Shown here: piece after piece, positions 1,595 through 62,929 of the stretch
Layout: each line of letters starts with the position of its first letter
How positions within the stretch are numbered: position 1 is the stretch's first letter
Assembly (NCBI RefSeq): GCF_014839805.1
Contig: NC_051119.1
Span: 8,239,245-8,303,244, forward strand
DNA from: Manduca sexta
Lineage: Eukaryota; Arthropoda; Insecta; Lepidoptera; Sphingidae
DNA: 64,000 nt
Direction: 5' to 3'
Program-made: the position numbers and the translations under genes
The notes under the pieces: model-generated
The model's database searches: none
The model's input: the letters and a program-made list of their open reading frames with translations, nothing else
Told to the model about the DNA's origin: nothing

Positions 1595-1715
1595 ATGTTT
1601 TTGGATATGAGGGAAATTGTTTTCTTGTTTTTTGTGATCATTGTTCTTCTGTTGGTGTTTATGTATCTGCAAATGTGTGATATCATCATTGGGAGATATA
1701 TCTTCAGAGTGTTTA
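1595..1715 (+). CDS. Alternative first exon V1, membrane anchor
   Basis: This is a 121-bp open exon: 40 codons plus one base, ending at A|GTAAGT (phase 1). The peptide has a short N-terminal tail (MFLDMRE), a membrane segment at about residues 8-25, then a tail with basic residues R34 and R38 that ends RVF. The ATG is the first in frame after a stop and has A at -3. Continuing past the donor gives a stop within a few codons and nothing protein-like, so splicing is expected. Length, single membrane segment and splice phase match the other exons of the array. The function of the product is unknown because the downstream exon is not in the window. A chance ORF is the alternative, but the combination of features makes that unlikely. 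Confidence 0.72.
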
Positions 1716-1798
1716 GTAAGTACATTATGTTCCACTGAGTTTAGTACATTTTATACAGTATTATTGTTACCTGACTATATTACACTATGCTTACAATA

Positions 1799-1876
1799 GG
1801 TCGATCTGAAAATCTTTGGGAGAGGCCCATGTTCAGCAGTGGACATCCTACGGCTGATGATGATGATGATGATTAC
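1799..1876 (+). repeat. LINE 3' tail with (GAT)n
   Basis: This short fragment carries TTCAGCAGTGGACATCCTAC followed by GGCTGATGATGATGATGATG, the typical end of a lepidopteran non-LTR element. A second copy lies at 46,070-46,143. No reverse transcriptase coding remains. Confidence 0.7.
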
Positions 1877-2499
1877 ATACACTGTATTAAAATTAGAAGA
1901 TGCTAAACCTTCACTGAACTTGGTCTCTGTAAAGATTCAAATAGTCATTGATACTTCAAAATTTTGCTGTTAGACTTGTGTCTGATTTTAACCCTTGAAG
2001 CAACAGAAGATTGTTTTAAGTTCTCGTGTGTAAGTATGTTTGTATAGGTATGTGTGTGAGTGGCATCGTAGCTCTCAAATGTATGCAATTATTTCGATTC
2101 AGACTTTTGTTTGAAAAATGATCAAAAATATGATATAATTCAAGAAAATTAGTTAATAATACATAAACACTAAACCTTACTCATAAAAGTTACACAATGT
2201 TCTATCATATTATATTTTTTATCACCTTCATGCCAACCACAATGATACGAGAGTACAAGAGACAACGCAATGATTAATGTTTATAAGTGATACGGTTCAA
2301 TTTAGAATGTCAATGCATGACAGATAATTTTTTAACACATTTTTCACTCGAACTTTAATAACAACGCATTTCTAATATATTAATAAATCGTATATAATGA
2401 TACAATACAATCAATTATCACGATTAGGTATTGAAGTAGGGGGAATTTGTTTTTGAACTAAAGTTAGTAATAATAACCCAGACTAGGCTTGTAGATTAA

Positions 2500-2830
2500 A
2501 CCCGATAATTCCTCGAGGCAGTGGCGGCTCTATACGACGCGAAGCCCCAGGCGAAAGCAAAAAGAAACAGACGCGAAGCCCCGGGCAGAGTAAAAAAAAA
2601 CGTTCCCCTGTTTTAACAATTTTGTCGGTAAGAACGTAAAAATTAGGTCCTGTGAGGCACCACGCGAGGCCTCTGTAAGCGCGAGGCGATTGCCTGGTTC
2701 GCCTCCCCCAAAGGCCGTCTCTGCCTCGAGGAACAGTTAGGCCTAAAGGTTCGCAAATCAGGCGTAGTGTGTTCTTCGTCAAGGTTAAAGTGTATTGGCA
2801 AAACGGTTTCTTCCCGCAAAAAGTAATATG
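2500..2830 (-). repeat. Unclassified interspersed repeat
   Basis: This stretch is more GC-rich than its surroundings. It contains CAGTGGCGGCTC near one end and two near-copies of GACGCGAAGCCCC about 36 bp apart. The minus strand is open for 131 codons, but the translation is low-complexity and shows no recognisable domain. It is best read as a DNA-transposon-type or LINE fragment rather than a gene. Confidence 0.4.
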
Positions 2831-3014
2831 ACAAATGTGGAATGCCATCTCGTATTGTACCAATTTAAATTTCAGCACGTCAACAGATTGTAATCTTTAT
2901 TTGCCATAACGATGGCAAGTATGTAGGGGCATGACTAGTAGCTGCTATTTTGGTTTTATTGCTTTGAATAGAAAAAACTTCACTATTTAATAAAGTATGC
3001 GGCTACATACTGAT

Positions 3015-3295
3015 CTATCTATACTATTATATAAATCTGAAGAGTTTGTTTGAACGCGCTAATCTCAGGAACCACTTGTTCGAATTGTTTTTTTTTAGTT
3101 TTGGATAGCTTATTTATCGAGGAAGGCTATAGGCTATATAACGTTACGCAATGCCCTATAGGAACGAAACATCAATGAAAAATGATTTAAAAAGGGGGAA
3201 TATTTTTAATTCCCTTGCAAGCTTCCGTTGCGTTCGCTGATTGAACGGTTAAAGTTACGCAAAATATATTTATGACGGAATTGTTCCCCGTACAA
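3015..3295 (+). repeat. Helitron-like short element
   Basis: It starts with the TCTATACTATTATATAAATC type of end and has the internal GAACGCGCTAATCTCAGGAA block. Relatives lie at 5.8, 40.5 and 49.3 kb. It is non-coding. Confidence 0.5.
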
Positions 3296-3317
3296 AGTAC
3301 TAAAATATGTAATAATA

Positions 3318-3540
3318 TATATATTATAAAACAAAGTCCCCCACCGCATCTGTCTGCCTAGCTAAACGCGATAAACTTAAAAACTACTCATCGGATTTCG
3401 ATGAAATTTGATATCGACATAATTTGAGACCCTGAGAAGTACTTAGGCTACTTTCTATCTCGGGAAAATATAAAGCGGAATTTTATCCCGCAAAAACTTT
3501 TGCTTGCGAGCGGTGCCGCGAACAAATCCCAGTATTTATG
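3318..3540 (+). repeat. Helitron-like short element
   Basis: It contains TATTATAAAACAAAGTCCCC and a body related to the elements at 29.8, 34.8 and 36.6 kb. It abuts the previous element and is non-coding. Confidence 0.5.
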
Positions 3541-4204
3541 TAAAAATAAGAGATCCCATTTTGTTTTTATCAAACGCTAATGTTGACTCGAATATGTCTT
3601 AGAGCAAATGAGAATTCAAAAAATCTTCCACCCAAAGTAATGCCGCTGTGAGTTAAATGTAGGCATTGGTTACATTTTACATACTTACAGTTACCTGCAT
3701 CAACTCTCAAATAAATTCTGGAACGTGAATAACTGCGTTACCTGACAGTAAGTGGTCACTTTCATGCAAAAACACCTTCAATTGACAATTATTATTCATA
3801 GTTGTTTTGGGTAGACACAGTCATTTCATATCGATTTATGCGCCTGACCGTCTTTATAATGCAAATTCTCTCTCGATACAATATATAATGCATTATAGAA
3901 TATTTTAGGAGACGTCGCGTCGTAAACATTCAATATATTACAACTAGTCAATACACTTTGAATTTGCAGATGACCAACCCCCGCAGTCCCCCGTAACCAC
4001 GAAGGCTGTCTTTGGAACGTCAGGAAAAAATTAAAATATTAAAACCGCGATAAAATCCGAAAAATAGTTTATTTGAATAGTCAGTCTTTATGTATTTTTG
4101 TAATCAAGAACAATTTTAGTCTTAAATAGGTAGCTTGGGGCTGCAACAGTATTGCATAACCTTTGTAGGTACAGTAAACAGACAAAATGCCCAACGTCGT
4201 ATTC

Positions 4205-4516
4205 GCTTCTTATTGGTGGTAGGTCTCTCATATGTGAGATTCCGCCTGGGTATGTACCTACCACCGCCTATTTCTGCCGCCAAGCAGCAGTATGTAGGCA
4301 CTGTTGTGTTCCGGTTTGGACATTATAGCCAGTGTAACTACTGGACATAATAAGACTTAACATCTAATGTGTCAGGATGGCGAGCCCAATGAAATATCAA
4401 ACAATACTGTGTAATTCAAGAAGTTGGTTGGTTTTTCTACTAGTTATGAGCGGTCGTATTGCTAACCATCAGGTGAACGGCAAGATCGTCTTGACATTTA
4501 AAGCAATAAAAAAAAG
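4205..4516 (+). repeat. LINE-tail/SINE family copy 1
   Basis: It runs from TTGGTGGTAGGTCTCTCATA through CCAAGCAGCAGT and ACTACTGGACATAATAAGAC to an AATAAAAAAAA tail. It resembles the 3' part of BMC1-type lepidopteran LINEs. Six further copies lie in the window, all on this strand. Confidence 0.7.
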
Positions 4517-5204
4517 TCGTACGTCATCGACCAGGCGTAACAGAGTGCCTGACGAGCACAATGTCAAGAAATCTCAGCTTAAGATGTCCCCTTGGGAACG
4601 ATTTTCTGATACGTGCAGTTCCTGACTGGTGAGAGGTGTTTCATTCACATTTCAATTCATTCATATTATGTCGGATCGCCGGGCTAAACGACGTCCTTCT
4701 ACCCACACTCATCTCAGTTATATTTCCATTACGAAAAAATGAGTTTCGTCCAATAAATTTATAGTGAATACATAAATACACAATCTGCAAGCATGAGCTA
4801 AGATAGTCGGAATCCAATACTTACGATGATAAGAATTCGATAAAGAATATAATTGAATATCGTATCTACTTCCTTGAAATAAAAAATATGTTTTTTATCT
4901 CGTCACGACAATGCCTAGTGGGCCTGGCAGTGAGCGCAGTGTGTCAAAATGTTTACTAAAATTAGATGTCGGCTTTACAATGATACCGGCTTACTTATTA
5001 GATGTACAATCAGCCACAAGAGTAGCTGTATAAATCCAAAATTTCAAACGGTCTTTAAACTTCTGTATCTTCTTATCAACAATAGCTTTTTCTTCACTAA
5101 AATTAACTGCATAGGATTAACTTTATTTTATAAAAAAAAGAATATTTAGATTTAAGTTAATGTGTAATGCATTTTGAAGTTTTGAATGTGTTCAGATAGG
5201 CCAT

Positions 5205-5450
5205 AACATCACTGACTTTTCTAAAAATATTATGTGTGTATTCTTTGTGAATTATCGTTTGCTTTAACGATGAAATAAACATCGTAAGGAAACTTGCATA
5301 CCTGAGAAGTTCTCTATAGGGATTACAAGGGTGTATGAAGTCTATCAATCCGCACTAGGCCAGCGTGGTGAACTTAGGCCTAATCCCTCTCAGTAGTAGT
5401 GGAGGCCCGTGCCCAACAGTAGGACAGTATATACAGGGCTAATATATATG
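5205..5450 (+). repeat. tRNA-like SINE family, 5'-truncated
   Basis: It holds the body and 3' end of the SINE that is complete at 58,198-58,528 (TGTGTATTCTTTGTGAATTA, then AATCCGCACTAGGCCAGCGT). The tRNA-like head is missing or degraded. Confidence 0.7.
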
Positions 5451-5824
5451 TAAGTGTTATGATTTGTAAAATAAATAAAAATATTAGACACGAAAGATGT
5501 CGCTTGTTTATTATAAGAATTATTTCTATAAGTACACATCCAGAAGCTTCTATGTTCTATGTTGATGGGCTTCTTTTTCCGCACTTAGCCCGAAGCAAGT
5601 CGGGCCGTTGTGCGTATTAGACGCTTCTACAATATCGGCTTGACAAATCTAATTAGATCTAATCGAGTGATGTATAGAAATTCTTTACACGTAATTAATT
5701 CGAAGATAAATGAATTAATTTGTAATTAAGTAGATAATTACAACAACAAAATTACCAGATGGTAAAATATAATCGTATGCGAGACTAGAGAACAGTACGA
5801 ATATTTCTTCTGCTAATTAACATT

Positions 5825-6022
5825 TTTATTTATTTACTAGCTTTTGCCTGCAGCTCCGTCCGTGTGAAAATGTCTCTTTGGATAAAAGGTAGCCTATAGC
5901 ACTCAAGAGTAATATAGATTTCTATTAGTGAAAAAAAAAATAAAATCCGTCTAGTAGTTCCTGAGATTAGTGCTTTCAAACAAAGAAACTCTTCAGCATT
6001 GTATATTAAGTATAGATTTTAA
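5825..6022 (-). repeat. Helitron-like short element
   Basis: This is an inverted copy of the family. ACTAGCTTTTGCCTGCAGCT is the complement of the GCTAGT end, and it closes with TTAAGTATAGAT, the complement of the TCTATAC end. Confidence 0.5.
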
Positions 6023-6419
6023 ATTTGACATTGCGTACTATGATTATAGAAGAATTAGACATTCTTGATTTTGTTAATAAAGTATTAACATTAATTTATA
6101 TTTATACTCTTAGATTTCGGCTTTATATTATAGACACTATAATTATTGGCCTAAGGGCTACTTAAAATATCTTAAGATGGTTGTCACTGAACGCAGTTTA
6201 ATGCCATGGAGGATATTTAATCTATAGTGGAGTGAATTTAATTTTGGAGTATCATTCAGAGGCCTTATTCTACGCCACACGTTATTTTTACAATGCGTAA
6301 CAAGCACGCAATGCACCGCGTCGCGTTTAAGATAACAGAAATTGTCATACAAAATACCATTCCATACTAATTTCACGAAGAAAACGTAACACGGCCGTGT
6401 TACGAGTTAACACGGTCAT

Positions 6420-7245
6420 CTATACTCTATACTTATAATAAATCTGTAGAGAGGTCAATTCTGTACATGAAATATATTTCCAAAATAACTATCAGGGGGT
6501 GATTAGGGATCGATACTGATGCCAAAAATGCAATTAGTAAAATTTTTGTCTGTCTGTCTGTATAACCGTTATAGAAACAAAAACTACTCGACGGATTTAA
6601 CGAAACTCGGTACAATTATTTGTCATACTCCTGAGCTGGTTATAGTATACTTTTCATCACGCTACAATTAATAGGAGCAGAGCAGTGAAGGGAAATGTTG
6701 GGAAAACGGGAGAAGTTACTCCATTTTTTAAGCTTCCGTCGCGTGTGCAACCTTAATGGTTAAAGCTACACAGAAATCATGTATGACGGAAATGTTCTCC
6801 TTAAAATTATGTAAAAATATCCCACGACAGCATATGTCTATCTTTTATGGTTGACTCACAATAACACGTGTAACTCCCGATAGCTTAGCAGTTCGAAGTT
6901 TTCTCATTATATTTGTCTACTCTTACGTTTATAACACTCTCAGTCATCCCTAATTAAAAAAGTTAACGTTATTAAATATTCCATAAAAAAGAATCGTACA
7001 AATCGGTATAGAAACACCAAACTTATACATGAAATACGCAAATAATAAGCCATCACGCGTGAATACTGAATCATGCTATATGCTTCCTTCGATTTCACCA
7101 GGATCCCATCATCAGACTCTGACCGGACAATCGGACCACCTGCATACCACCATACAATAAAAAAACATCCCGACAAATTGAGCACCTCCTCCATTTTTGA
7201 AGTCCGAAATCCACCCGGGCGAAGCTGCAGGCGGAAGCTAGTATA
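6420..7245 (+). repeat. Helitron-like element, long copy
   Basis: It begins TCTATACTTATAATAAATCT and ends CAGGCGGAAGCTAGTA. A near-identical copy lies at 52,764-53,442 but breaks off before the last 170 bp or so, so both insertions look recent. A (TCTG)n tract lies near 6548. It contains no coding sequence. Confidence 0.6.
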
Positions 7246-7599
7246 GAATAAAGCCCCAATTATATAAAACATTTGCTACTTACTATCAACTTTTGATTTG
7301 TCCACACTGTGGAAAAACATAAAGGATTAAGAACAAACGATCATTCTATAAAATCGCCGAGTGTTTTATCCAAACCCTGCGGTATCTAATTAATCCATAT
7401 CTATCAATTTGTAGATAATGATTATCGTGCTCACATGTCATAAATTTTGGCGTTCCTTCGGCTGAAAAATGGTTTTAGTAGTTTTCACAGTGCGTTCGTT
7501 GAGCTATAATTATCCCTATATTCAGTGAGCTATATTATTGGTCTTAGTAGTTTTTTAGTGGTGTCTTGAGCAATAAATCTTTATTCAGTTAGCTATATT

Positions 7600-7852
7600 A
7601 TATAAAACTCGCTATTCCCGTGGCTTCACTCGCGTGGAAGTCAGTATGTCACATTTCCCCGCATAAATCCCGACCCACAAGATTTTTTACAACGGCACGA
7701 TCATTTTAATAGTAATCTTTAGAATTCATTAATTATAATTGCACTATCTTTTAGTAGAAACTCTACAAAAATCCGGTCAGTAGATTTTGAGAAAATCGAT
7801 CACATACAGACAGACAAATAAATCTAGTTGTATATACCTATTTCGTTTCATG
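7600..7852 (-). repeat. Degenerate Helitron-like element
   Basis: It contains the CGTGGCTTCACTCGCGTGGA and CCGGTCAGTAGATTTTGAGA blocks seen in related elements. The edges are unclear. Confidence 0.4.
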
Positions 7853-7974
7853 GCATGATTTAACCGTTACGAAAGATGATATTAATGTATGAGTCAACAA
7901 TCAGCATGGATGTTAATAAAAAAATAAATTGTACGGAACTCTACACTAAAATTCGTCAACAATCCCTATTATTT

Positions 7975-8039: not shown

Positions 8040-8130
8040 ATGGAATACACACTGTTATTTTTACCGTTTGTGGTTATGGTTGTGGTTTACGCGGGAACTT
8101 GCGTGTTCCTGCATTGCTGCGAGTTATTCA
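8040..8130 (+). CDS. Alternative first exon V2, membrane anchor
   Basis: This 91-bp open exon has 30 codons plus one base and ends at A|GTAAGT (phase 1). The start context is GCAAAATGG, close to the insect consensus. Only three residues (MEY) precede a membrane segment at about residues 4-24 (LLFLPFVVMVVVYAG...CVFL), followed by HCCELF and the donor. There is almost no N-terminal tail, so the exon encodes little besides an anchor. An ACAGTG initiator-like motif lies just before the ATG, and a CGATAA site lies 65 bp upstream. A CTCF-like site lies about 540 bp downstream. The downstream partner exon is not in the window. Confidence 0.8.
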
Positions 8131-12202: not shown

Positions 12203-12344
12203 ATGGAGAGCCAGAACCTGACAGAAACAAAAGAAGAATTCGAAATGCCAAACAGTAGTAAAAGAATGATCGGACTGTTGCCTATGTTTTTGTTAGTTTT
12301 AATCGTAGTTCTGAGGATATCGTGGACGTTGTACAAGAGTTTCG
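12203..12344 (+). CDS. Alternative first exon V3, long-tail anchor
   Basis: This 142-bp open exon has 47 codons plus one base and ends at G|GTAAGT (phase 1). The start context is TAAAAATGG. Unlike most of the array it has a 21-residue polar, acidic N-terminal tail (MESQNLTETKEEFEMPNSSK) before a membrane segment at about residues 22-37; R38 and K45 follow. The tail holds two N-glycosylation sequons (N5-L-T and N17-S-S). With the acidic tail and basic residues after the segment, this favours an outside N terminus and a cytoplasmic C terminus. That topology is inference from the positive-inside rule. The next exon lies 14 kb further on. Confidence 0.8.
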
Positions 12345-21564: not shown

Positions 21565-22145
21565 GTGGTAGGATATATTTTATATCCACCCAAATAGCGA
21601 CTACACAATATGTTAAAACCTGCCACAGTGGCTCACATAAGTGTGTCGCGTTCCGGGATCAGCCTGTATAAATCCGGTTCAGATAAGCCGGCATAATTAT
21701 GTCGACTGTCGATATGCGACTACACAATATGTTAAAACCTGCCACAGTGGCTCACATAAGTGTGTCGCGTTCCGGGATCAGCCTGTATAAATCCGGTTCA
21801 GATAAGCCGGCATAATTATGTCGACTGTCGATATGCGACTACACAATATGTTAAAACCTGCCACAGTGGCTCACATAAGTGTGTCGCGTTCCGGGATCAG
21901 CCTGTATAAATCCGGTTCAAATAAGCCGGCATAATTATGTCGACTGTCGATATACGACTACACAATATGTTAAAACCTGCCACAGTGGCCCACATAAGTG
22001 TGTCGCGTTTCGGTATCAGCCTGTATAAATCCGGTTCCAACAGGCCGGCATAATTGTGTCAACTGCCGAGGGGTAATCTCTCGCCAGTCGACATTCAATT
22101 GTACCCCACTTACCATCAGGTGCAGTCACACTGCCGTGCCTAGAA
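21565..22145 (+). repeat. TATATTTTATATCC repeat with 4 x 119-bp tandem array
   Basis: The family copy starts near GGTGGTAGGATATATTTTAT. Its middle is tandemly amplified: CTACACAATATGTTAAAACC begins at 21,601, 21,720, 21,839 and 21,958, an exact 119-bp period. The first three units are nearly identical; the fourth diverges and runs into the normal family 3' end. Confidence 0.85.
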
Positions 22146-26781: not shown

Positions 26782-26930
26782 ATGGATGAAAAAGACCCCG
26801 ATGAATTATTGGAAGAAAAAAACGATATAATTAGATCAGTGTGGATCAGATTAATTGTCATTCCGCTCAGCGTCACGTTGTGCGTTCTCTTATATCTGTT
26901 GTACAACTGCCACAAAACTAACAAAGAAAT
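26782..26930 (+). CDS. Membrane-anchor exon V4, phase exception
   Basis: This is an open exon of 49 codons plus two bases ending at T|GTAAGT. An acidic tail of about 20 residues (MDEKDPDELLEEKNDIIRSV) precedes a membrane segment at about residues 24-41, followed by NCHKTNKE. It looks like an array member in every way except that its splice phase is 2, not 1, so it cannot join the same acceptor in frame as the others. ATTAATTTTGCAG at 26,760-26,772 is a plausible acceptor nine bases before the ATG, so V4 may be an internal or second exon. If the intron were retained, a stop follows at once (codon after ATG of the donor), giving a 50-residue membrane peptide. Confidence 0.5.
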
Positions 26931-28234: not shown

Positions 28235-28257
28235 CGATAAGCCAGGACAACTTATCG
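28235..28257. promoter_or_regulatory. Two GATA-type motifs before V5
   Basis: CGATAAG at 28,235 and TTATCG at 28,252 lie in opposite orientation 160-185 bp upstream of the V5 ATG. Confidence 0.35.
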
Positions 28258-28417: not shown

Positions 28418-28529
28418 ATGCGCATCGAAAAGTTTGAGCTAATTTGTGTCCTCCTACTGCCTATTATAAGTTGTTTGGTGTATTTCATGGTTGTTATTGG
28501 GATTTATTTGAAGAGCCACTGTGTTGCTA
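28418..28529 (+). CDS. Alternative first exon V5, membrane anchor
   Basis: This 112-bp open exon has 37 codons plus one base and ends at A|GTAAGT (phase 1). A seven-residue charged tail (MRIEKFE) precedes a membrane segment at about residues 8-31, then KSHCVA. The start has A at -3. The 3' half of the exon with its donor is repeated twice more downstream (28,632 and 28,774), evidence of local tandem duplication. The coding part of copy 2 is conserved as IVIGFYLKRHCVA, while copy 3 has lost its donor. Confidence 0.8.
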
Positions 28530-28895
28530 GTAAGTAGATTATTTTTTTTAATAAGTATTAAATTAAAGTACTTACTAACTGATCTATTAGTCGGTTGAAT
28601 AGTAATTTAATTATATTTTTCCTATTTTCAATTGTTATCGGGTTTTATTTGAAGAGGCACTGTGTCGCTAGTAAGTAGATTATTTGCTTCAATAAGTATT
28701 AAACTAGTAATACTTACTAATTGATCTATTAGTCAGTTGAATAGTAATTTAATTTTTTTTTTCCTATTTTCAATTGTGATTGGGATTTATTTCAAGACGC
28801 ACTGTGTTGCCAATAAGTGATTTTTAGTTATTAAGTAACCTTACTTACTAACTGATCTAATATTAGTAGGTTGAATAATTATTTTCAATGTGTTT
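28491..28895 (+). repeat. Three tandem copies of the V5 3' half
   Basis: Units of about 141 bp start at 28,491, 28,632 and 28,774. Each begins TTGTTAT or TTGTGAT and holds the last codons of V5, the splice-donor region and about 90 bp of intron (for example CTGATCTATTAGTC). Copy 2 keeps A|GTAAGT in frame. Copy 3 reads A|ATAAGT, a broken donor. Copies 2 and 3 have no ATG or obvious acceptor in front. Confidence 0.85.
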
Positions 28896-29007
28896 TCATA
28901 TTTTCAAAAATCCTTACACTTTTAATTTTTGTTTTTATTTTATTTACACTTTTTACACATGCATCAATGGCGAAGGTCCATATAACACGATTCCTATCTT
29001 CCCTTTA

Positions 29008-33204: not shown

Positions 33205-33228
33205 TTATCGTTAATTCGTAACCGATAA
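33205..33228. promoter_or_regulatory. Two GATA-type motifs before V6
   Basis: TTATCG at 33,205 and CGATAA at 33,223 lie in opposite orientation about 115-135 bp upstream of the V6 ATG. Confidence 0.35.
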
Positions 33229-33340: not shown

Positions 33341-33425
33341 ATGAAGATGCAAATTTATTTAATAATTGTAGTTGTGTTCTTAGTGGGTATTACGTTGTAT
33401 ATAATCGAAGTGATTTGGGGAAACA
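33341..33425 (+). CDS. Alternative first exon V6, membrane anchor
   Basis: This 85-bp open exon has 28 codons plus one base and ends at A|GTAAGT (phase 1). Four residues (MKMQ) precede a membrane segment at about residues 5-22, followed by EVIWGN. A TTATAAAAAATA stretch lies about 20-25 bp before the ATG. The start context is the weakest of the array (T at -3), and a second in-frame ATG lies two codons later. The short anchor followed by a Trp resembles the N terminus of microsomal enzymes in general shape only; no family is assigned. Confidence 0.75.
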
Positions 33426-33949
33426 GTAAGTCATTTTTATTTATTTTTCTCACGACTTCTTTCTAGTAGGCCGTGCCAATGTTATTTCTCAAACTACAGC
33501 AATTATCCTCACTGTTTTACTTGTGATGAAAATAATAATTCATTTATTTTTATTTTCACTTACAATGTTTTACATATATCTTTGTGTACGCTGATTTTCG
33601 TAATTCGTATATAATATGTAGAAGAGCTATAGTAACTGACATTCGAGTGTGAAATTTTGGAATTCTTTGATTTCGTATCACTATTGTATATTCTGGTAAT
33701 GGCACCTAACAGTTGTTATAGGATCTTGTTGGAATTTTACTTTTGATTTTCTAATTAAACTTGTGTTCAATAGAATCAGCAGGCCGTAATGACATGCTGC
33801 TATATAATTTCAATAATTTGTTTACTTCACAGATTTTTTTAATATAATTCAATCTATAGCCTGACCAATGAAATAAATAATGTCGCTATGTTGTGGTAAA
33901 ATATTAAACTAATTTTTTTTACTGGCATCTTTAATATTAAAACCAAAAT

Positions 33950-35826: not shown

Positions 35827-35850
35827 CGATAAACTTGATGTACACGATAA
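35827..35850 (+). promoter_or_regulatory. Two CGATAA motifs before V7
   Basis: AATCGATAAAC at 35,825 and CACGATAACT at 35,843 lie 91-114 bp upstream of the V7 ATG. Confidence 0.4.
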
Positions 35851-35940: not shown

Positions 35941-36019
35941 ATGGAGGTTACTTTACTCATTTTCATTTTGTTCCTAGTGGCTGTTATTATGTATAGTGTC
36001 GAGTTCTTGTGGCGATTCC
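35941..36019 (+). CDS. Alternative first exon V7, membrane anchor
   Basis: This is the shortest exon: 79 bp, 26 codons plus one base, ending at C|GTAAGT (phase 1). The peptide is MEVT, then a membrane segment to about residue 20, then EFLWRF. An ACAGTG initiator-like motif lies about 10 bp before the ATG. Two CGATAA sites lie about 100 bp upstream. The base carried into the next codon is C rather than A or G, so the junction residue differs from that of the other isoforms. Confidence 0.8.
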
Positions 36020-39242: not shown

Positions 39243-39345
39243 ATGGTTGCTTATACTTTACCTGGGTATTTATTCCTGCCGGGTATCATTTTGTTTTTAA
39301 TCTTGTTTCTGATATTGACACGGTTCACACTTCTTCAGTATTGCA
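39243..39345 (+). CDS. Alternative first exon V8, membrane anchor
   Basis: This 103-bp open exon has 34 codons plus one base and ends at A|GTAAGT (phase 1). The start context is TAAAAATGG. The tail MVAYTLPGYLFLPG, with two prolines, leads into a leucine/isoleucine-rich membrane segment at about residues 9-25, then TRFTLLQYC. It is the most uniformly aliphatic segment of the array. A MITE lies about 110 bp downstream in the intron. Confidence 0.8.
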
Positions 39346-40923: not shown

Positions 40924-41014
40924 ATGAAACAAGACGCTGCATTAGTGTTTTCTATGGTGGTCGCTTCTTTGTGTTATATGGTCCTCAAGTTGTGCGTCTG
41001 TCTCTATTGGTATA
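40924..41014 (+). CDS. Alternative first exon V9, membrane anchor
   Basis: This 91-bp open exon has 30 codons plus one base and ends at A|GTAAGT (phase 1). MKQD is followed by a membrane segment at about residues 5-21, then a cysteine- and aromatic-rich end (KLCVCLYWY). The start has A at -3. Three cysteines (C17, C24, C26) lie in or next to the segment and could be lipidated if cytoplasmic, which is speculation. Confidence 0.78.
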
Positions 41015-44835: not shown

Positions 44836-44965
44836 AATACCATAAACCTACCGCGTTAAGACTGAAGCCGACATATTTTTCAAGGGCTTAGATACGCCTG
44901 ATTTAATCCTCGAAACCTAACCTTCCTACATTCGTAGATTAATGTAATTTATTGATAATTTAATC

Positions 44966-44973
44966 GATTGATA
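44966..44973 (+). promoter_or_regulatory. TGATAAG motif before V10
   Basis: TCGATTGATAAGTC lies about 70 bp upstream of the V10 ATG, with TTGATAAT just before it. Confidence 0.35.
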
Positions 44974-45037
44974 AGTCTCCACACTGTGTCGTGTCCTTAT
45001 TATTCATTAGTATTGAATGTGCAAATAATAGTGTACG

Positions 45038-45143
45038 ATGGAATCAGTTGGTCTTCTTATTTTGTTAACAACTTTACCAGCTCTTATGATGTTCGTGGTT
45101 GTGATGATTGTGATGTCGTGTATATCTCTCATAGATTGGTTAG
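45038..45143 (+). CDS. Alternative first exon V10, membrane anchor
   Basis: This 106-bp open exon has 35 codons plus one base and ends at G|GTGAGT (phase 1), the only GTGAGT donor in the array. MES is followed by a long hydrophobic run from about residue 4 to 32, rich in methionine and valine (for example MMFVVVMIVM), then DWL. It has a proline at residue 14, so it could be two short helices or one kinked one. The start has A at -3. Confidence 0.78.
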
Positions 45144-48100: not shown

Positions 48101-48197
48101 ATGGATACGGTAGCGTCGGTACTCACCGCCGTGTTCTGCATGATGTGTGTTTATTTATTTTGGATGTGGTTCTGTTTGGGACGCTGCGTTTTACAAA
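48101..48197 (+). CDS. Alternative first exon V11, membrane anchor
   Basis: This 97-bp open exon has 32 codons plus one base and ends at A|GTAAGT (phase 1). The start context is CAAAATGG. MDT is followed by a membrane segment at about residues 4-26 rich in aromatic and sulphur residues (CMMCVYLFWMWFC), then GRCVLQ. It has two CGATAAG sites one turn apart just upstream, the clearest promoter-like motif arrangement in the array. Confidence 0.8.
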
Positions 48198-50262: not shown

Positions 50263-50914
50263 GTACTTATTAAAAATAATTGAGACCCAAACACCGACTC
50301 TTACTCAATATCTTTTGTTTTTTCCCGGCAGCATATATCCTGTTATTGTGACATGACCATTGCACGTTTTTGAACGTATAATATAAAAACCTTTCCAATG
50401 AGTTGAGTTACCGAAAAAGCTTTTTTTATTGAACAAGATATGCTAAACCACGTTCTACGACTAAGTTGCCATTAAAGCTGATTGCAAATAGCCTGCTCAC
50501 TATTACAAGGTACTATATTATATTTTCTTAAAATATATCACATGGTCCCGTGTCTTAGTCAGTAAATAATCCTTAAAGAAAAATAAAGGGGAGGAACCAT
50601 AAATTATTGTCTTGAAATTTTTACTGACATGAAAATATTTAATTTAATTTTTCAACATGCATAAAAATTTACACAGTACCTTCTAACATATAAAGGCGCA
50701 TGTTTTGTAATACAATCTAGTTATGTTTTATGTATATATTATAAAATTATGTAAAAAGAAATTGAAATCTGTTTTGCGTCTTAATTAAATAAATCAGCGA
50801 ACTCTTATGGCCTATTTCTTTAAATCACGTACCTTGCATTTTCTACTTTAATACAATTACATTACGTACGTACACGAATGATAATTAATATCCGTTATCA
50901 ATAGATACTAAGCT

Positions 50915-50920
50915 TTATCG
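50915..50920 (-). promoter_or_regulatory. TTATCG motif before V12
   Basis: CTTTATCGTAC lies about 120 bp upstream of the V12 ATG. GTTATCAATAGATA lies 20 bp further up. Confidence 0.3.
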
Positions 50921-51041: not shown

Positions 51042-51132
51042 ATGACGAATAATTTGGCCGGTGTATTGGTTTTTATGATATTAAACATATTGTTGTTTTG
51101 GGTGATTTACGCTGTTGTTGTGAGATATTTTG
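51042..51132 (+). CDS. Alternative first exon V12, membrane anchor
   Basis: This 91-bp open exon has 30 codons plus one base and ends at G|GTAAGT (phase 1). The frame is open back to 50,961, but the only in-frame ATG is here, in ACAAAATGA context. MTNN precedes a membrane segment at about residues 5-27, then RYF. The upstream open stretch is rich in Tyr and Phe from T-rich DNA and is probably leader. Without splicing the frame ends four codons after the donor. Confidence 0.78.
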
Positions 51133-56022: not shown

Positions 56023-56517
56023 CCGTGACTTTACTATTTTAATATTTCAAATTGTATTTTTTTGAGCTTGTAACACTTTATCATTTTTAATTTCAATGTA
56101 TAATAAAAAATAATTACATCAAATTTAAAATAACAAAAACACATCTAAGTAAAAATTACTACCCACACAATGTAAGATTATATTCTATGGGACCAATTCC
56201 TACATTATCTACAAACTACATAAATACATGGATTTATTCAAAAGATGCTCAGTTTTTGCTTTTTGAATCATTAAAAAAATTATCCAGATTAGATTGCGAA
56301 GTTGGTAAGCGCGTAGATTATTTAAAAAAACGATATATATGGATATCTACAAAATCGTATGACACATAGATAAACACATATACATAACTTTATATATAGA
56401 GAGAAATAATGGCGATAAATTGTTGAAAAAAGCTTATAAAAGGAACACGGACATTTTACTTTTTATCTATAAGTAGAATGTGCAAAATAAAAACCCGTTG
56501 ATAAGTTAAAAATATGT

Positions 56518-56543
56518 CGATAACGGCCATTATCCTTTTATCG
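56518..56543. promoter_or_regulatory. GATA-type motif cluster before V13
   Basis: TTGATAAG at 56,498, TCGATAACGG at 56,517 and TTTTATCGTATG at 56,536 lie 95-140 bp upstream of the ATG. A TATTCAGTGT initiator-like match at about 56,601 lies about 35 bp before it. Confidence 0.4.
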
Positions 56544-56637
56544 TATGGATATATTATAGCTTTAGTCATTTTTTAATTAGTTTCGACCAATCAGTACGTT
56601 TATTCAGTGTACAGGAGAATTTAGTGATAAATTCAAG

Positions 56638-56719
56638 ATGTACTATCCTTCACCAGCTTTTCTGTTTTGGGTGACCTTTCTTTTGGTGTTAATAGTTATT
56701 GTTAGTTTCAGATCAATGA
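56638..56719 (+). CDS. Alternative first exon V13, membrane anchor
   Basis: This 82-bp open exon has 27 codons plus one base and ends at A|GTAAGT (phase 1). MYYPSP is followed by a membrane segment at about residues 7-24, then RSM. The start has A at -3. A TTCAGTG initiator-like sequence about 35 bp upstream and a GATA-type cluster about 100 bp upstream fit an own promoter. A CGCGCCATCT core lies about 50 bp after the donor. Confidence 0.78.
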
Positions 56720-57387
56720 GTAAGTACAATTTTATTTTCAAAGTCGTTTGTTTTTTTGTATTAAACCGATCGCGCCATCTATGAAGGGATTTCGGAATTA
56801 ATGTAAATATTTCACAGATATCGTCATCCTTATTGTACCCATGTCGTGTCACGAATAGTCTTCTGGGATAGTAAAAAAAAACACTATTACAATTCCAATA
56901 CAACCTTTATGTATAGAAAGGAAGATATAAAAAACTGTGATAGTAAAACATTATCATAATTATGACGTAGTTTATAACAAAGAATTATTGTTTTTTATAA
57001 TATATAAACTTTCCATGCAGTGGTAGCAACATTAAGCCTTTATTCTTATTGATTATAGCGCAAGCTGTCTGTATGTTTCATTGCCACGTAGTAATTTATA
57101 TTTGTCGAAATAGATATCGTTTATCAAGGTCCACTGACGGCCACAACTAACAACTATTAGTTAATACTTATCTAATACCCGAATAACATTTGGATGAGAA
57201 ACAGGGACAAAATATATTATCTATTATCAATATCGCTTGCGATTTTTCGATAAATGCGAAGTGTTACTAAATTTACATTACTTTTAAGCATTCATTGATA
57301 ACATCTATGCCTAATGGTAATGATTTTGAAACTAACGGAACTCGGTTGACAGTTTTAATTGCGGTTTTATGAAAATTCCTTAAGGTT

Positions 57388-57608
57388 TGCTGGTTGTAGG
57401 GTATATTTTATGTCCGCCTGGATACCAATCACCGTATACAAGGTGTTAAAACCTGAAATAAGCACAAGTAAATGTGTTACATTCCGAGATTAGCCTGTGT
57501 ATATCCGGTTCCAACAGGCCGGCATAATTGTGTCAATTGCCAAGGGGTAATCTCTCGTCAGTCGACATTCTATTGGACCCTACTTACCATCAGGTGCAGG
57601 TCAATTTG
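57388..57608 (+). repeat. TATATTTTATATCC repeat family
   Basis: This is a full-length copy from TTGCTGGTTGTAGGGTATAT to TACTTACCATCAGGTGCAGG. Confidence 0.7.
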
Positions 57609-57903
57609 CGCGCACGTTAAAAAATGTACTGAATATTCTTGGTAATTGGTACGTCTACTAAATCTAGATAATTGTGGATGTTTTGTGTTGCTAATTTAGT
57701 TTATTTAATGTTCCATTGGTATTTACTGTTTTAAAGAAAGTTTGTATATCGCTTAATACGACGAATAACTTTAGTAATAAACGGCCCAAAACACTATCTT
57801 TAGATCGATTTTGAAAGTAAGCCAATCAGAATAAATCATTTGTAAGCATATCAAACAAATTGACATGATTGGTCCGTTTTCATAGTCAATCCGATGATAA
57901 TGC

Positions 57904-57988
57904 TTGGGATCTGTAACTGATATCGGACTTTGTTTTGATAATCGTTTAATTAATGTTTTAATAGTTTTAATATTTGTGTTATGTATAA
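57904..57988 (+). pseudogene. Possible decayed array exon
   Basis: The frame reads ...CFDNRLINVLIVLIFVLCI, then A|GTAAAA in phase 1, just where an array exon would end. There is no in-frame ATG between the preceding stop (57,898) and the hydrophobic run, and the donor is weak. It may be an array member that lost its start, or chance. It lies between V13 and V14, so the position fits. Confidence 0.25.
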
Positions 57989-58197
57989 GTAAAATTAATG
58001 TATGCGAGCAGGGAGGTGCAAAGGGCTCATGCACCCCCCTGTCCAGAAATAAATCACAAAAATATAAGTCACTGAATAAATCTGCAACAATGGGAACTAT
58101 CAACCACAGAGGTTTTTTTATGATAACACTTTAATAAACCCGCGTAATACGAATTTAAAAAAAAACTTAATAATATTATGTAGTATATAATAGTGCG

Positions 58198-58528
58198 AAG
58201 CGGCGATAGCCTAGTTGGGTGTGGAACGGACTGCCGAGACGAATGTCCGTAGGTTCAAATCCCAAGGGCACACACCTCTGACTTTTCTAAAATCATGTGT
58301 GTATTCTTTGTGAATTTATCGTTCGCTTTAACGGTGAAGGAAAACATCGTGAGGAAACCTGCACATCTGAGAAGTTCTCTATAGGAATTTCGAAGGTGTG
58401 TGAAGTCTACCAATCCGCACTAGGCCAGCGTGGTGGACTAAGGCCTAATCCCTCTCAGTAGTAGAGGAGGCCCGTGCTCAGCAGTGGGCAAGTATATAAT
58501 ACAGGGCAGATATTATTATTATTATTAT
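58198..58528 (+). mobile_element. Full-length tRNA-like SINE with 14-bp TSD
   Basis: This is the best copy of the family. It has the head GATAGCCTAGTTGGGTGTGG (box A type), GTAGGTTCAAATCCC (box B type), a SINE body and a (ATT)n tail. TATATAATAGTGCG is duplicated at 58,184-58,197 and 58,529-58,542. Confidence 0.85.
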
Positions 58529-59571
58529 TATATAATAGTGCGTAGGTGCAGATGCACTTTGATAAAACTAATCTTTGGGCGCCCATGGATTTATGTGTAA
58601 TAATCGGAAAAAACCGGCCAAGTGCGATTCGGACTTGTGCACCGAAGGTTCCAAATTTGTAGCTAAGGTATCTATGTATATTAAGTAGGTTCGAACTTGA
58701 CAAACGTAACTTTGCCGTTCGAAAACTTCACACAGTTATTACACCAATGTGAATAGTAAGTTTGTAATAGTAAATTCCCTTTTTTCTTATTAAAGTTCAT
58801 AATTAAGGTTTTCCTTACATTGTATCATGCCAAATTTCCTGTTTCTACGTCAACGGGACTTACCCTATAGGTTTTGATTCTCTTGTAAAATCACAAAATT
58901 TGTGGCACAAAAGGTAAAATCTTTTCTCCTTGTCTTAATTGTTTGTTGTTTTCACAGCTAAAAGGGACTGTAGGCATGAGTTTTTGATATACTCGTAAAT
59001 TTCAACTTAATTCTACGGGTTTCTAAGAAAAATATTTGATAAATACAAAAGGACGGACGGACTCCAAAATGATTCCTTTTGAAGTGAGAAACCCTTAAAA
59101 TATTAGTGCAGTTTTTTATTATATTCGAGTACAAAGTACTGACATATCATGAAGAGGAAAACGAACGTCGCATGATCATTTATAAATATGTCGCATATCA
59201 AAATAATCTTTCAGATAAATTCGGATATTGATTGATATTGTAAGTTTAAACGAAAGTAAATTTTATTCTAACTACACAAAACAGAAATTCGTAAAACATC
59301 AGATTTCGGGCACGTAACTGAATATTCAGATTGAAAAGATTTATTACATAAATAAGATCATTTTGAAGCAACATAACGTACTGGTGGAAAGTGTTAGTTA
59401 AAATGTAAAAAAAAAAATACTGAAAAAGAGATTACCGTGATGTTTGTGACCAAACATAACTGCGTGATCAAATCATAAAAGTAACGAACTGTTTTGGACT
59501 TCAAAACAACATCGTTTTAAGTGTACCACGAATTTGTCGAGTATGCTTACATAATTTGGCCATTTGGAAAA

Positions 59572-59710
59572 ATGCCTCCATCTGCAGAAGATTTAGATAT
59601 GAGGTCTGAGGAAAGCAATGTATCTATCACGGCGATAGCATACATTTCTGTCCTCTGTACTCTTTTATTGATGTCCTTTGTCATTATGTGCATCAAGATG
59701 GCGCATTTGG
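59572..59710 (+). CDS. Alternative first exon V14, long-tail anchor
   Basis: This 139-bp open exon has 46 codons plus one base and ends at G|GTAAAT (phase 1). The frame is open back to 59,521, but this is the only ATG before the tail, in GAAAAATGC context. An acidic tail of 18 residues (MPPSAEDLDMRSEESNVS) holds the sequon N16-V-S and precedes a membrane segment at about residues 19-41, then KMAHL. The donor is one base from GTAAGT. AAGATGGCGC inside the last codons resembles a CTCF core but is also coding. Confidence 0.78.
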
Positions 59711-61424
59711 GTAAATATATTTCTATTTAAACTCTAGCGAACTCAATTAGTACCAAACCTAACGTCTTTTACTAAAATGTGAGTTTTATCATCATCTACG
59801 TGTAATGAAATTGTGGTTTCCAATGTACTTTCAAATCAAGTTACGTTTAATGGCTTTCGTCATTGTTTGATATGAAGAATAATTAAGAAACATTAGTTTG
59901 TCATAAATTGGCTTCACGGTACGCGCATTAATATTACATTTACAGACATTACAATTGACATGACAAGTTGTGGTTAAAGACAAATTAACAAGCAATGAAA
60001 TTACATTAAATACTGATTGATAATGTATTCATATATAGTATTTGATGCACCATCTAACCATCCTAAAGAGCCACTATTATATGAATATGCCATTGCTGTA
60101 TTTTACAACAAATTTTAAATTTTGACTCAGAAAAACCATTTCTTTTTACTACCTAAAGGACACCTTTAGCCAGACCGGACCTGGCGTAAGCTAGGCTTAA
60201 ACGAATTAAGAGAAATTTAGATACATTACATCGACAATAAATAGAAATTTCTTTATATTAATCACTCATTCGCTAATCTACTGCCAAAACTACGATTAAA
60301 AAGGATTATTACGGTTTGGATAAAGTTCGCTCCATGTCTGGCAGAAATAGCCAAAGTTTTCGGCCTTTTATTTCTGTATTTATATCTAAAGGTTTTTAGC
60401 TTTTGCCTGTGAATCCGTCCACCAGTAAGACTTTTCCAAGACCTCTTATTCTCATTTATCCGGAATGAAAGGTTGTCTCTGTGCTAATCCAGGAAATCGC
60501 CTATCTATATATCCAAATCTGTACAAATATCTGTTCATATATTAACATTAAATAGGATCATAATAAATACAGTGGGAACAGCAAGCCACATCTTCTGTGA
60601 ACTTATCAGACGATTCAATCAAACGGAATCTAATCTTAATCCGGCTCGTCAGAATGTGGCCAATGATTGTCTTTGTTTCTGAAGGTATGAAAGAAAATAT
60701 ATTTATAAATACGTCCGTGTTTAAAACATTGTTAAACAAAAACGAAGCAACAATAGAAATATTAAAATTTATGGGCAAATGCAAAATAAATCAACAAGGA
60801 AGATAGAAGAAAGCACCAGCGGTTCAGTTATATTTGGTATTTAGGCTGGATCTGTTACAGTTATAAATAAAATTGAGGTTTTATCAATAATAAACCATTT
60901 TTGGCTTTTACCTGCTAAACTAATGTCAAGGTCATTTGCTAAATTTTATAGCTAAACTTAGTATAGAGCGTTCACTGTTTGCTAGACTAACACTTGAAGA
61001 GCCTCCTATTTACTTCCATGGGTATAAAACATCTCAGCCCAATCCGGGTCAAAAATATTAGTAAGTAAAACTAGTGTACATTTTATATGAGTTACAACGT
61101 TCTTATTTTAACTCTCGCCGCCTAATCTAGACGACTGTCTGATATCGAATGATTTCGATATGATAACGAAAAAGCACACTCAAAATATTTTCTAACTGGT
61201 TAGTTGGTGCAAAATTATGGTGCCGAGTGCTTTCAAGATGTATATTACAATATCAGTACTTCAGTAATTAGAAATACGGTTCAACATTCCATTAATTTGT
61301 TTAATCAAGTTATTGTGAGTGCATTAAAGCAGCGACGCTCGACTTTTTTGCTCGACAAAGAAGCAACGAGTGTCCTTGAAAGTGATAATCTTTTCATTTG
61401 ATAAGTGAAATCACGCTTACAACC
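59711..61424. other. Intron-like DNA, no gene recognised
   Basis: Open frames of 60-69 codons at 60,597 and 61,204 show no domain, membrane anchor or donor. About 60,385-60,540 holds decayed short-element sequence (TTTTAGCTTTTGCCTGTGAA). Two TGATAA sites (61,161 and 61,399) lie upstream of V15. Confidence 0.35.
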
Positions 61425-61614
61425 ATGTCTCCTATATACGGACATCCGTCTTATGAGTTCGATAGATTTGAAGAGTATTCTCATCCAGATGATTACATGC
61501 CGAATCAGGACCAGACGAATCTGACGCAAATGGCTTTCTGGTACATGATGGTACTGATAGCTATGCTGCTTCTGTGGCTTGTGCTGTTCTTCTGCTTGAG
61601 GATCATAGCACTGA
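61425..61614 (+). CDS. Alternative first exon V15, longest tail, weak donor
   Basis: The homologous exon end gives 63 codons plus one base at A|GTTCGT (phase 1). A 35-residue tail rich in Asp, Glu, Tyr and Pro (MSPIYGHPSYEFDRFEEYSH...) holds the sequon N32-L-T and precedes a membrane segment at about residues 36-58, then RIIAL. The start context ACAACCATG is good. The donor is far from consensus; the next GT (TC|GTATAA) would be phase 2. If unspliced, the frame stops five codons on (SSYKY then TAA), giving a 68-residue membrane protein. V15 may be weakly spliced, or on its way to decay. Confidence 0.6.
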
Positions 61615-62560
61615 GTTCGTATAAATATTAATTTTATGACGTAAGATGCCTAAAACTTTGTAGAGATCATTTCGTCTTCAGCATTAAGGGGATAGCTCGA
61701 ATGGGACTATACTAGTGTCAAAAACAGATGTAAAGTGGGTTTCTCTTGTTTTGAACGAGATTTTTAAAGACCCAAAACATATTTTTGCTTTAACAGTATC
61801 AATTCCTTTGGCATTATCTATGAGTACATCCGTTATCGATTACTTAACATTAGCTTCTCGACTTGGTCTTTTTTCGGTCTATGTTGTTAAAATTTTTGTT
61901 GGTTTTGAAGAAAGTTTTTCTGATATGGTTCATCTTAATTTACAATGTGTTCTTTAAAAACTAAGGTCGTGTTATAATATAACAAAGCCAATTTGCCTTC
62001 CTTTATAAATTGATATTATGGGATGTGCCTCTGGAGATTTGCTCTTAGCACGAATACTCTATGTGAAAATGACATTCAGGTGCTATCTAGTTGACTAATT
62101 ACATGAGTATAGATCTGCGTTAGACAATTCGTCTCACTTAAATGACTAATCTCTACCACAGTAACAACACTATAAACTCAATATTTTATGCTGTACGATA
62201 TATACTGTGCTATTTTTTTCTTCTTTTACACCATTTTAAAAACAATTATGAAATATATCTGAAAATTCCCGCGTATTTATGTCAACAAGTTACAACAATC
62301 GTCACTTTTAAAACGTCATTATATAGATAAGATATAATTATAATTAATTTAAGATCGTCAAAAAACAATTAACATGTGTCCATTGAGAAGTTATTAAACT
62401 GTTAGACCATTATTGACATTTTGTCGCGCAGTTTCAGTTCAAATTTAGAACAGCTTTTAACTTTTTCTATGTTTTTTTTGGCCAGTAATATGACGTAACA
62501 AATTTATACAATAACCGTTAACCAATAAATACATATTATGGTGTCTATTAATATAACACA
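61615..62560. other. Non-coding DNA between V15 and V16
   Basis: Open frames at 61,715 and 62,142 (80 and 62 codons) show no recognisable domain and no array-type donor. No repeat was recognised. Confidence 0.35.
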
Positions 62561-62778
62561 TTGATAATTACATCAAGTGTCATAAATATTTTATTCAGTT
62601 TACAATAAGTTATCAGAAAGATAAAGGGGTACCACCTATACTTAATTTGTATTACGTTTAATCAATACTTCTCTGTGTTTATCAACGCTAGGTCGTGTTA
62701 TGTGTGTGCCTACGTAAATAACGAAATAACGTATTCCAAAATGCTAAATTAACAGTTTTTTTTGTGAAAAATAACGTT

Positions 62779-62929
62779 ATGGAATCTCAAACTTCTTCGG
62801 TAAATATTAAAAGTTATCAAGTGGTCTATCAGAATTCGCTCGCAGATGTTATTTGGTCTATTCTCAGTACAAGCACTACATTCCTTCTTATTATTTTTAT
62901 TGTGACTTGCATCCGCGTATTGATATTAG
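62779..62929 (+). CDS. Alternative first exon V16, long-tail anchor
   Basis: This 151-bp open exon has 50 codons plus one base and ends at G|GTAATG (phase 1, weak donor). A 23-residue polar tail (MESQTSSVNIKSYQVVYQNS) precedes a membrane segment at about residues 24-45 containing TSTTFLLIIFIVTC, then RVLIL. The ATG has G at -3 and G at +4. TTGATAATTA, GTTATCAG and AGATAAAGG lie 155-220 bp upstream. It is the last exon seen before the window ends; the constant exons should lie further 3'. Confidence 0.72.

What the first reader, a model, noticed from the sequence alone, without database searches (positions are those of the whole stretch)
1595..62929. Array of about 16 alternative first exons, each a membrane anchor with the same splice phase
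Sixteen short ATG exons on one strand, spread over 61 kb, each consist of one membrane segment and end at a 5' splice site. Fifteen are in phase 1 and 12 have GTAAGT; 13 have A at -3. No coding body follows any of them. This is the layout of a variable-first-exon cluster (as in mammalian UGT1 or protocadherins), but here the variable part is almost only a membrane anchor. The constant part must lie 3' of the window, and the array may extend 5' as well. Standard gene finders would miss exons this small. I know of no described lepidopteran locus of this type.
Basis: partly seen in the sequence, partly recalled or inferred. Interest (0 to 1): 0.92.

Follow-up and report, generated by a model that had tools for sequence, protein, structure and literature searches.

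The report
Moth gene with interchangeable membrane anchors
In the tobacco hornworm moth, one gene offers about fifteen alternative starting pieces, each a different membrane anchor, all joined to one shared tail that probably recruits the cell's protein-disposal machinery; other moths and butterflies have relatives of it, and the papers searched did not describe it.

Summary
The array is real. All 16 single-membrane-segment ATG exons are at the stated places on one strand. Twelve have GTAAGT donors; shuffles give 0.73 such exons and the other strand none. The window is Manduca sexta, gene LOC115455920 ("uncharacterized"). The constant part starts 127 bases past the window edge (64127-64252), with a last exon from 66229. 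Joined to these two exons, 9 of the 16 give annotated Manduca proteins letter for letter. Eleven of 16 have close counterparts in other Lepidoptera, joined to the same tail. One exon (26782) is out of frame and probably not a member. I saw no 5' extension.

The tail holds two conserved PPxY motifs, ligands of Nedd4-family ubiquitin ligases, laid out much as in Drosophila Commissureless. The anchors are predicted N-out, C-in. A paired YGATAA element, 16-20 bp apart, lies just upstream of seven exons. Best reading: a promoter-selected set of membrane adaptors sharing one Nedd4-recruiting tail, the anchor setting cargo or address. The gene layout rests on sequence and public gene models, not on reads seen here; the function is inferred. 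I found no paper on this locus in the searches made.

The parts
1595..1715 (+). variable first exon, membrane anchor, phase 1, GTAAGT
   Evidence: splice product equals annotated protein P0008 (LOC115455920 X5); counterparts in other species
8040..8130 (+). variable first exon, phase 1, GTAAGT
   Evidence: equals P0001 (X9); counterparts
12203..12344 (+). variable first exon with 21-aa outer tail, phase 1, GTAAGT
   Evidence: counterparts in other species; no identical protein among those listed; predicted length 164 fits the gap for X3 (inference)
26782..26930 (+). membrane-segment ORF, phase 2, GTAAGT; probably not a productive member
   Evidence: out of frame with exon 2, no counterpart among the listed proteins, no YGATAA within 250 bp upstream
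28418..28529 (+). variable first exon, phase 1, GTAAGT
   Evidence: equals P0005 (X6); counterparts
33341..33425 (+). variable first exon, phase 1, GTAAGT; prediction only
   Evidence: splices in frame; clusters with 35941
35941..36019 (+). variable first exon, phase 1, GTAAGT
   Evidence: equals P0004 (O3G_MSEX002854)
39243..39345 (+). variable first exon, phase 1, GTAAGT
   Evidence: equals P0006 (O3G_MSEX002854)
40924..41014 (+). variable first exon, phase 1, GTAAGT; prediction only
   Evidence: splices in frame; no counterpart among the listed proteins
45038..45143 (+). variable first exon, phase 1, GTGAGT
   Evidence: equals P0002 (X7); counterparts
48101..48197 (+). variable first exon, phase 1, GTAAGT; largest cluster
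   Evidence: equals P0003 (X8); cluster of 19 sequences from 19 source labels, Manduca included
51042..51132 (+). variable first exon, phase 1, GTAAGT
   Evidence: counterparts; no identical Manduca protein among those listed
56638..56719 (+). variable first exon, phase 1, GTAAGT
   Evidence: counterpart in Pectinophora; no identical Manduca protein among those listed
59572..59710 (+). variable first exon, phase 1, GTAAAT
   Evidence: equals P0009 (X4); counterparts
61425..61614 (+). variable first exon with 42-aa outer tail, phase 1, weak donor GTTCGT
   Evidence: counterparts that reach the constant part at the same codon; predicted length 180 would fit X1 (inference)
62779..62929 (+). variable first exon, phase 1, GTAATG. 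The constant exons it and the others join lie beyond the window, at 64127-64252 and 66229-66452 (+) in extended coordinates
   Evidence: equals P0007 (X2); counterparts; constant exons
28235..28257 (.). paired YGATAA upstream of 28418
33205..33228 (.). paired YGATAA upstream of 33341
35827..35850 (.). paired YGATAA upstream of 35941
44953..44974 (.). paired YGATAA upstream of 45038
50879..50920 (.). three YGATAA upstream of 51042
56499..56543 (.). three YGATAA upstream of 56638
61383..61404 (.). paired YGATAA upstream of 61425

Best explanation
One gene (Manduca sexta LOC115455920) has a tandem array of about 15 alternative first exons, each probably with its own promoter. A transcript starting at any one of them splices, in phase 1, to the same two constant exons (SHOWN for nine exons at the level of sequence and public gene models; PREDICTED in frame for six more). 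Each product is a protein of about 143-180 residues with a short outer tail, one membrane helix set by the chosen exon, and a constant cytoplasmic tail with a basic stretch and two PPxY motifs (SHOWN as sequence; topology PREDICTED). INFERRED: the constant tail recruits Nedd4-family ubiquitin ligases through their WW domains, as in Commissureless, and the variable helix and outer tail choose the membrane partner or compartment. Promoter choice would thus decide which membrane proteins a cell removes or sorts. INFERRED: a paired YGATAA element helps mark these promoters.
For: Layout: 9 of 16 predicted splice products equal annotated proteins; the constant exons match once each in the genome, 3' of the array; no further consensus exon in 100 kb on either side. 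Conservation: 11 of 16 exons have counterparts elsewhere in Lepidoptera; both PPxY motifs in 124 of 125 full proteins. Topology: the inner flank is more positive than the outer flank in 125 of 125, though the inner flank includes 12 residues of the basic constant part. In the four long-tailed exons the membrane segment is better kept than the tail in 15 of 15 comparisons that I chose, e.g. 12203: 16 of 19 against 10 of 21. Mechanism by analogy: Comm's PPCY and LPSY start nine residues apart and are needed to bring Nedd4 to Robo1 (PMC12101832); here PPKY and PPSY start eight apart, and APPSYEEVV resembles Comm's GLPSYDEAL (PMC5578492 passages). Upstream element: 9 YGATAA pairs against a control mean of 0.09.
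Against: No read, cap or binding data were available, so promoter use and Nedd4 binding are untested. No Pfam family passes its cut-off in the 10 proteins with scores shown; among 66 members the best E-value is 0.00034 in the 25 families shown. The Comm model's matches in this genome do not include this locus. A helical-face pattern of conservation, expected for a partner-binding helix, was clear in 1 of 7 exon groups. In the six short-tailed groups compared, anchor identity to the chosen counterpart varies widely, from 4 of 19 (45038) to 16 of 19 (1595). 33341 and 40924 have neither an identical protein nor a counterpart in the lists. Motif learning found nothing better than shuffles; other words (CGTAC, GTACAC) were enriched too; the YGATAA pairing was noticed before it was tested, and two of the 15 exons (39243, 59572) have no such site within 250 bp.
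Confidence: 0.62

Rival explanations
1. The cluster is real but the anchors are interchangeable: the many first exons exist to place one adaptor under many promoters (tissue, stage), and the helix only has to cross the membrane.
For: All 125 anchors are hydrophobic helices (minimum hydropathy 1.95); the 16 Manduca anchors share about 13% identity in one register; some exons are poorly kept even between counterparts (45038, 28418); a shared upstream element points to promoter function.
Against: Single residues inside the membrane segment are kept exon by exon (e.g. YLFW.WFCFG in 48101, PF......Y...C....CC in 8040), and the anchor is better kept than the outer tail in the four long-tailed exons.
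Confidence: 0.17
2. The variable helix is itself the effector, a micropeptide-like regulator of channels, transporters or receptors, and the PPxY tail only sets the protein's own turnover.
For: Small single-pass proteins can act by helix-helix contact (recalled, general knowledge); conserved Cys, Tyr and Trp inside several helices.
Against: The constant part is conserved well beyond the PPxY cores (30 invariant columns in 66 sequences), more than a bare turnover signal should need.
Confidence: 0.15
3. The exons are first exons of separate small genes.
For: Most have A at -3 of the start codon (13 of 16) and YGATAA sites upstream (13 of 15).
Against: No coding body apparent between exons; nine public proteins use one shared tail; the tail matches once in the genome.
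Confidence: 0.01
4. The pattern is chance or an artefact of reading ORFs.
For: Membrane-like ORFs do occur by chance (one search lists others on both strands).
Against: 12 against 0.73 expected, none on the other strand; identical proteins and counterparts in other species.
Confidence: 0.005

Closest known systems
Clustered protocadherins and mammalian UGT1 (variable-first-exon clusters; recalled, plus the start of one listed abstract on Xenopus cPcdh, PMC4978886)
   Same: Tandem variable first exons on one strand, one splice phase, shared constant 3' exons
   Different: There the variable exon is a large ecto- or catalytic domain; here it is 26-63 residues in Manduca, mostly a membrane anchor, and the constant part is a PPxY tail
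Drosophila Commissureless (PMC12101832; PMC5578492)
   Same: Short single-pass protein, cytoplasmic PPxY then [L/P]PSY[D/E]E motif, start-to-start spacing 9 there and 8 here, Cys near the inner end of the helix in 5 of 7 exon groups examined
   Different: No variable-exon cluster is described for Comm in the passages read; Pfam Comm is below cut-off where scores were shown; no Robo or Nedd4 link shown here
Other PY-motif membrane adaptors: C. elegans PYT-1 (PMC12377508), vertebrate PRRG4, yeast Rcr1/2 (PMC5578492); WBP1 (Pfam name only)
   Same: Membrane anchor plus PY-motif tail; weak Pfam matches of some members to WBP-1 (14 of 66), RCR (6), TMEM52 (5), Comm (4) at E up to 1
   Different: No variable-anchor cluster in the passages I read
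Insect Dscam and Gr loci with alternative exons (recalled)
   Same: Insect genes with many alternative exons
   Different: Dscam varies internal Ig exons by mutually exclusive splicing; Gr loci vary most of a receptor; neither varies only an anchor

Membership tests
Variable-first-exon cluster | Tandem alternative first exons on one strand in one splice phase | tested here: met
   15 of 16 in phase 1, 16 of 16 on +
Variable-first-exon cluster | The exons join the same constant 3' exons | tested here: met
   9 of 16 products equal annotated proteins with one tail; six more splice in frame by prediction; tail matches once in the genome; read-level junctions not seen
Variable-first-exon cluster | Each variable exon has its own promoter | tested here: inconclusive
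   YGATAA sites within 250 bp upstream of 13 of 15 exons; no cap data
Variable-first-exon cluster | Variable exons maintained as distinct counterparts across species | tested here: met
   11 of 16; order in other genomes not seen
Commissureless family (PF15957) | Pfam model above gathering score | tested here: not met
   4 of 66 members match at E up to 1, best 0.001, bits not shown; P0068 16.4 bits against 27; this locus not among the 4 genome matches
Commissureless family (PF15957) | Short single-pass protein with two cytoplasmic PY motifs in the Comm order | tested here: met
   124 of 125 proteins with both motifs, topology predicted; Comm layout from PMC12101832 and PMC5578492
[quoted passage not shown]
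   Cys kept in at least 90% in 5 of 7 exon groups (48101, 8040, 1595, 61425, 59572), not in 12203 or 51042
PY-motif Nedd4 adaptors | PPxY-dependent binding of a Nedd4-family ligase | not testable with these tools
   motif present; no binding data
PY-motif Nedd4 adaptors | Recruits a membrane cargo for ubiquitination or sorting | not testable with these tools
   none

The most novel reading that the evidence does not exclude
Moths and butterflies have a gene-encoded choice system for membrane-protein removal: one Nedd4-recruiting tail with a menu of 15 or so membrane helices, each the recognition part for a different receptor or transporter, and each cell type selects its helices by promoter choice through a paired YGATAA code. 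It would be the protocadherin layout applied to ubiquitin-ligase substrate adaptors.
Probability: 0.33. Interest if true: 0.92.

Novelty: new variant of a known kind. Interest (0 to 1): 0.8.

Why it matters
Variable-first-exon clusters are known for vertebrate adhesion and detoxification genes (recalled). Here the same layout diversifies mainly a membrane helix in front of a likely ubiquitin-ligase adaptor tail. Matching proteins come from hawkmoths and silkmoths, noctuids, Galleria, Pectinophora, tortricids and butterflies (species names; family placement recalled). If the helices choose cargo, the gene offers a ready-made panel for asking how a transmembrane helix specifies what a Nedd4-type adaptor removes. 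For Comm, a 2017 paper says it is not known whether the association with Robo is direct (PMC5578492 passage). Public records name the gene "uncharacterized" or "hypothetical", and two relatives TOX4-like and Mediator subunit 15.

Tried and rejected
Searching 13 concatenated exons as one query found nothing at E up to 10: probably too little sequence per exon. Splicing the exons directly to exon 3 was my first model; it missed exon 2, which the annotated proteins then showed. Motif learning on the upstream regions gave no motif better than shuffles; k-mer and pair tests did, among many words tried. TATAAA was not enriched; TCAGT was weakly enriched at 300 bp only. Helical-face periodicity was significant in 1 of 7 groups. 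The Comm model gave 4 matches in this genome, none over the cut-off and none at this locus (best E 0.029, stops inside). PDB by sequence: 0 matches. NCBIfam: one sub-threshold match in 4 proteins. Pfam also gave weak matches to Atrophin-1 and SARAF (11 of 66 members each), which I take as proline-rich or membrane-segment noise. The structure job had not finished and is not used. Separate small genes, chance and a 5' extension were considered and rejected. One search also gave weak tblastn matches outside the 16 exons (best E 1.4e-4 at 33454, the rest 0.002 or weaker), which I take as chance. An earlier count said 12 of 16 exons have orthologues; one search gives 11.
Full report
Observation. 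A scan for ATG, a membrane segment (19-residue hydropathy of at least 1.8) and a GTAAG donor found 12 on the + strand and none on the - strand; 30 dinucleotide-preserving shuffles gave a mean of 0.73 and at most 4. Fifteen of 16 end in phase 1, 12 of 16 have GTAAGT and 13 of 16 have A at -3 of the start codon. Between the exons no coding body is apparent: in sequence not repeated within the window the + strand has 20 open frames of at least 210 bases and the - strand 35. About 14.4 kb of the window is repeated elsewhere in the window; of the 16 exons only 28418 overlaps such a repeat, a local tandem one.

What it is. The genome of the window is held. I fetched 100 kb on each side. The same kind of scan found no further phase-1 GTAAGT anchor exon there; some frames with other donors or phases occur on both strands, e.g. 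phase-1 GTGAGT at 154441 and GTAAGG at 106830, both far beyond the constant exons. That scan does not list 61425 or 62779, whose donors are weak, so it could miss others like them; tblastn with 116 variable parts from other species found no strong match outside the array. Downstream I noticed a terminal exon from 66229 with PPSYEEV. A protein search with a provisional product then returned Manduca sexta LOC115455920 isoforms (X2, X4-X9) and two O3G_MSEX002854 proteins, which revealed a further constant exon at 64127-64252, 127 bases beyond the window. Exon 3 is coding to 66452, with the stop at 66453-66455. Joining each window exon to exon 2 and exon 3 reproduces nine annotated proteins letter for letter: 1595, 8040, 28418, 35941, 39243, 45038, 48101, 59572 and 62779. 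By length, the unseen isoforms X1 and X3 would fit 61425 and 12203 (inference). Exon 26782 is out of frame. Each constant exon matches once in the genome. A profile search gave 291 matches at E up to 10; the 120 listed are lepidopteran or unnamed. Four proteins from an unnamed source are full spliced products whose longest contigs are 1.1-3.1 kb (P0014, P0015, P0024, P0034). That is shorter than the genomic span in Manduca, so they probably come from RNA (inference). Four others from that source are partial, without a variable part (P0012, P0013, P0051, P0061).

Conservation. Among 132 variable parts (116 from other records, 16 from Manduca) single-linkage clustering gave 32 clusters. Eleven Manduca exons share a cluster with other species: 1595, 8040, 12203, 28418, 45038, 48101, 51042, 56638, 59572, 61425 and 62779 (59572 and 61425 fell in one cluster). 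Five do not: 26782, 33341, 35941, 39243 and 40924, of which 33341 and 35941 pair with each other. Tblastn gives the same eleven. I take such counterparts as orthologues; gene order in other species was not seen. Counting identical proteins and counterparts together, 13 of 16 exons have outside support. Up to 16 different variable strings per species were listed (Pectinophora, Helicoverpa armigera), near-identical variants included.

Protein anatomy. All 125 proteins with a full constant part (9 of them from Manduca) have a membrane segment with hydropathy of at least 1.95. The inner flank, counted with 12 residues of the basic constant part, is more positive than the outer flank in 125 of 125. 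Forty-two have an outer tail of 12 residues or more, and 19 of the 125 have a sequon in the outer tail; sequons also occur in 125 of 125 constant tails, so they prove no topology. PPKY is present in 125 of 125 and PPSY in 124 of 125. Thirty columns are invariant in 66 aligned sequences. In the four exons with long tails the membrane part is better kept than the tail in 15 of 15 comparisons with counterparts I chose; in the six short-tailed groups compared, anchor identity runs from 4 of 19 (45038) to 16 of 19 (1595); between the 16 Manduca anchors it averages 13% in one register. Residues kept in at least 90% sit inside the helices, but a one-sided pattern is clear only for exon 8040, 1 of 7 groups.

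Upstream element. CGATAA occurs 12 times within 150 bp upstream of the 16 starts against 1.7 in window controls, and 14 times within 200 bp against 3.15 in shuffles, 0 of 300 reaching it. Other words, such as CGTAC and GTACAC, were enriched too. Over 250 bp and 15 exons there are 30 YGATAA sites in 13 exons, with nine neighbouring pairs 16-20 bp apart (tested as 14-21) in seven exons. Two thousand control sets from the 264 kb, repeats not masked, gave a mean of 6.4 sites (maximum 17) and 0.09 pairs (maximum 2); random placement of the same sites gave 1.4 pairs, 0 of 5000 reaching nine. The 250 bp after the donors hold 8 sites and no pair; the five further upstream bins hold 3-10 sites each and one pair in all. 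Motif and spacing were seen before they were tested, and it is unknown whether other Manduca promoters share them.

Mechanism. PPxY motifs are known ligands of WW domains of Nedd4-family ligases. In Drosophila Comm, PY motifs PPCY and LPSY (residues 220-223 and 229-232) are needed to bring Nedd4 into a complex with Robo1 and to send Robo1 to lysosomes (PMC12101832: abstract, one section and passages read). Comm is a short protein with one membrane domain and an extended motif GLPSYDEAL, further PY motifs lying before it; outside the motifs conservation is low even among insects (PMC5578492, passages). C. elegans PYT-1 is another such adaptor (PMC12377508, passages). The tail here, PPKY and then PPSYEEVV eight residues on, matches that layout. 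I therefore propose a set of Nedd4 adaptors with exchangeable anchors. Ligase binding and cargo choice are inference. It is not filed as a Comm member: the Pfam model stays below its cut-off where scores were shown, reaches 4 of 66 members weakly and finds nothing at this locus in the genome search.

Novelty. Literature searches for alternative or variable first exons in Lepidoptera and insects, for the gene identifiers of five species (0 papers) and for PPxY or PY adaptors with Lepidoptera showed no description in the titles and abstract starts listed. Searches listed only part of their matches (25 of 57, 15 of 703, 12 of 6,453, 15 of 21), and the library lacks most subscription papers. The parts are known kinds; the combination appears new.

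Noticed in passing
28491-28907: A 142-bp tandem duplication (2.4 copies) starts inside exon 28418 and copies its 3' part and donor; the copied donor at 28670 has no ATG frame of 12 residues or more before it, an apparent dead duplicate of a variable exon.
   Followed up: partly
26782-26930: A membrane-segment ORF with a perfect GTAAGT donor but in phase 2; unspliced it ends at the TAA of the donor, and splicing to exon 2 shifts the frame. Possibly a decayed or regulatory exon.
   Followed up: partly
61614: Exon 61425 ends at a very poor donor (GTTCGT), although counterparts reach the constant part at the same codon; it may be losing function in this species.
   Followed up: partly
21597-22069: Four near-identical 119-bp tandem copies.
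   Followed up: no
window coordinates -3993 to -2870 (L012): Pieces of a mariner-like transposase (by eye) upstream of the array.
   Followed up: no
P0062, P0112: Relatives of this gene carry probably misleading names in public records (TOX high mobility group box family member 4-like; putative mediator subunit 15).
   Followed up: no
P0086, P0093, P0107, P0109 (Helicoverpa armigera): Two gene identifiers (LOC110379324 and LOC135118625) carry near-identical isoforms, perhaps a recent duplication or an assembly duplicate.
   Followed up: no
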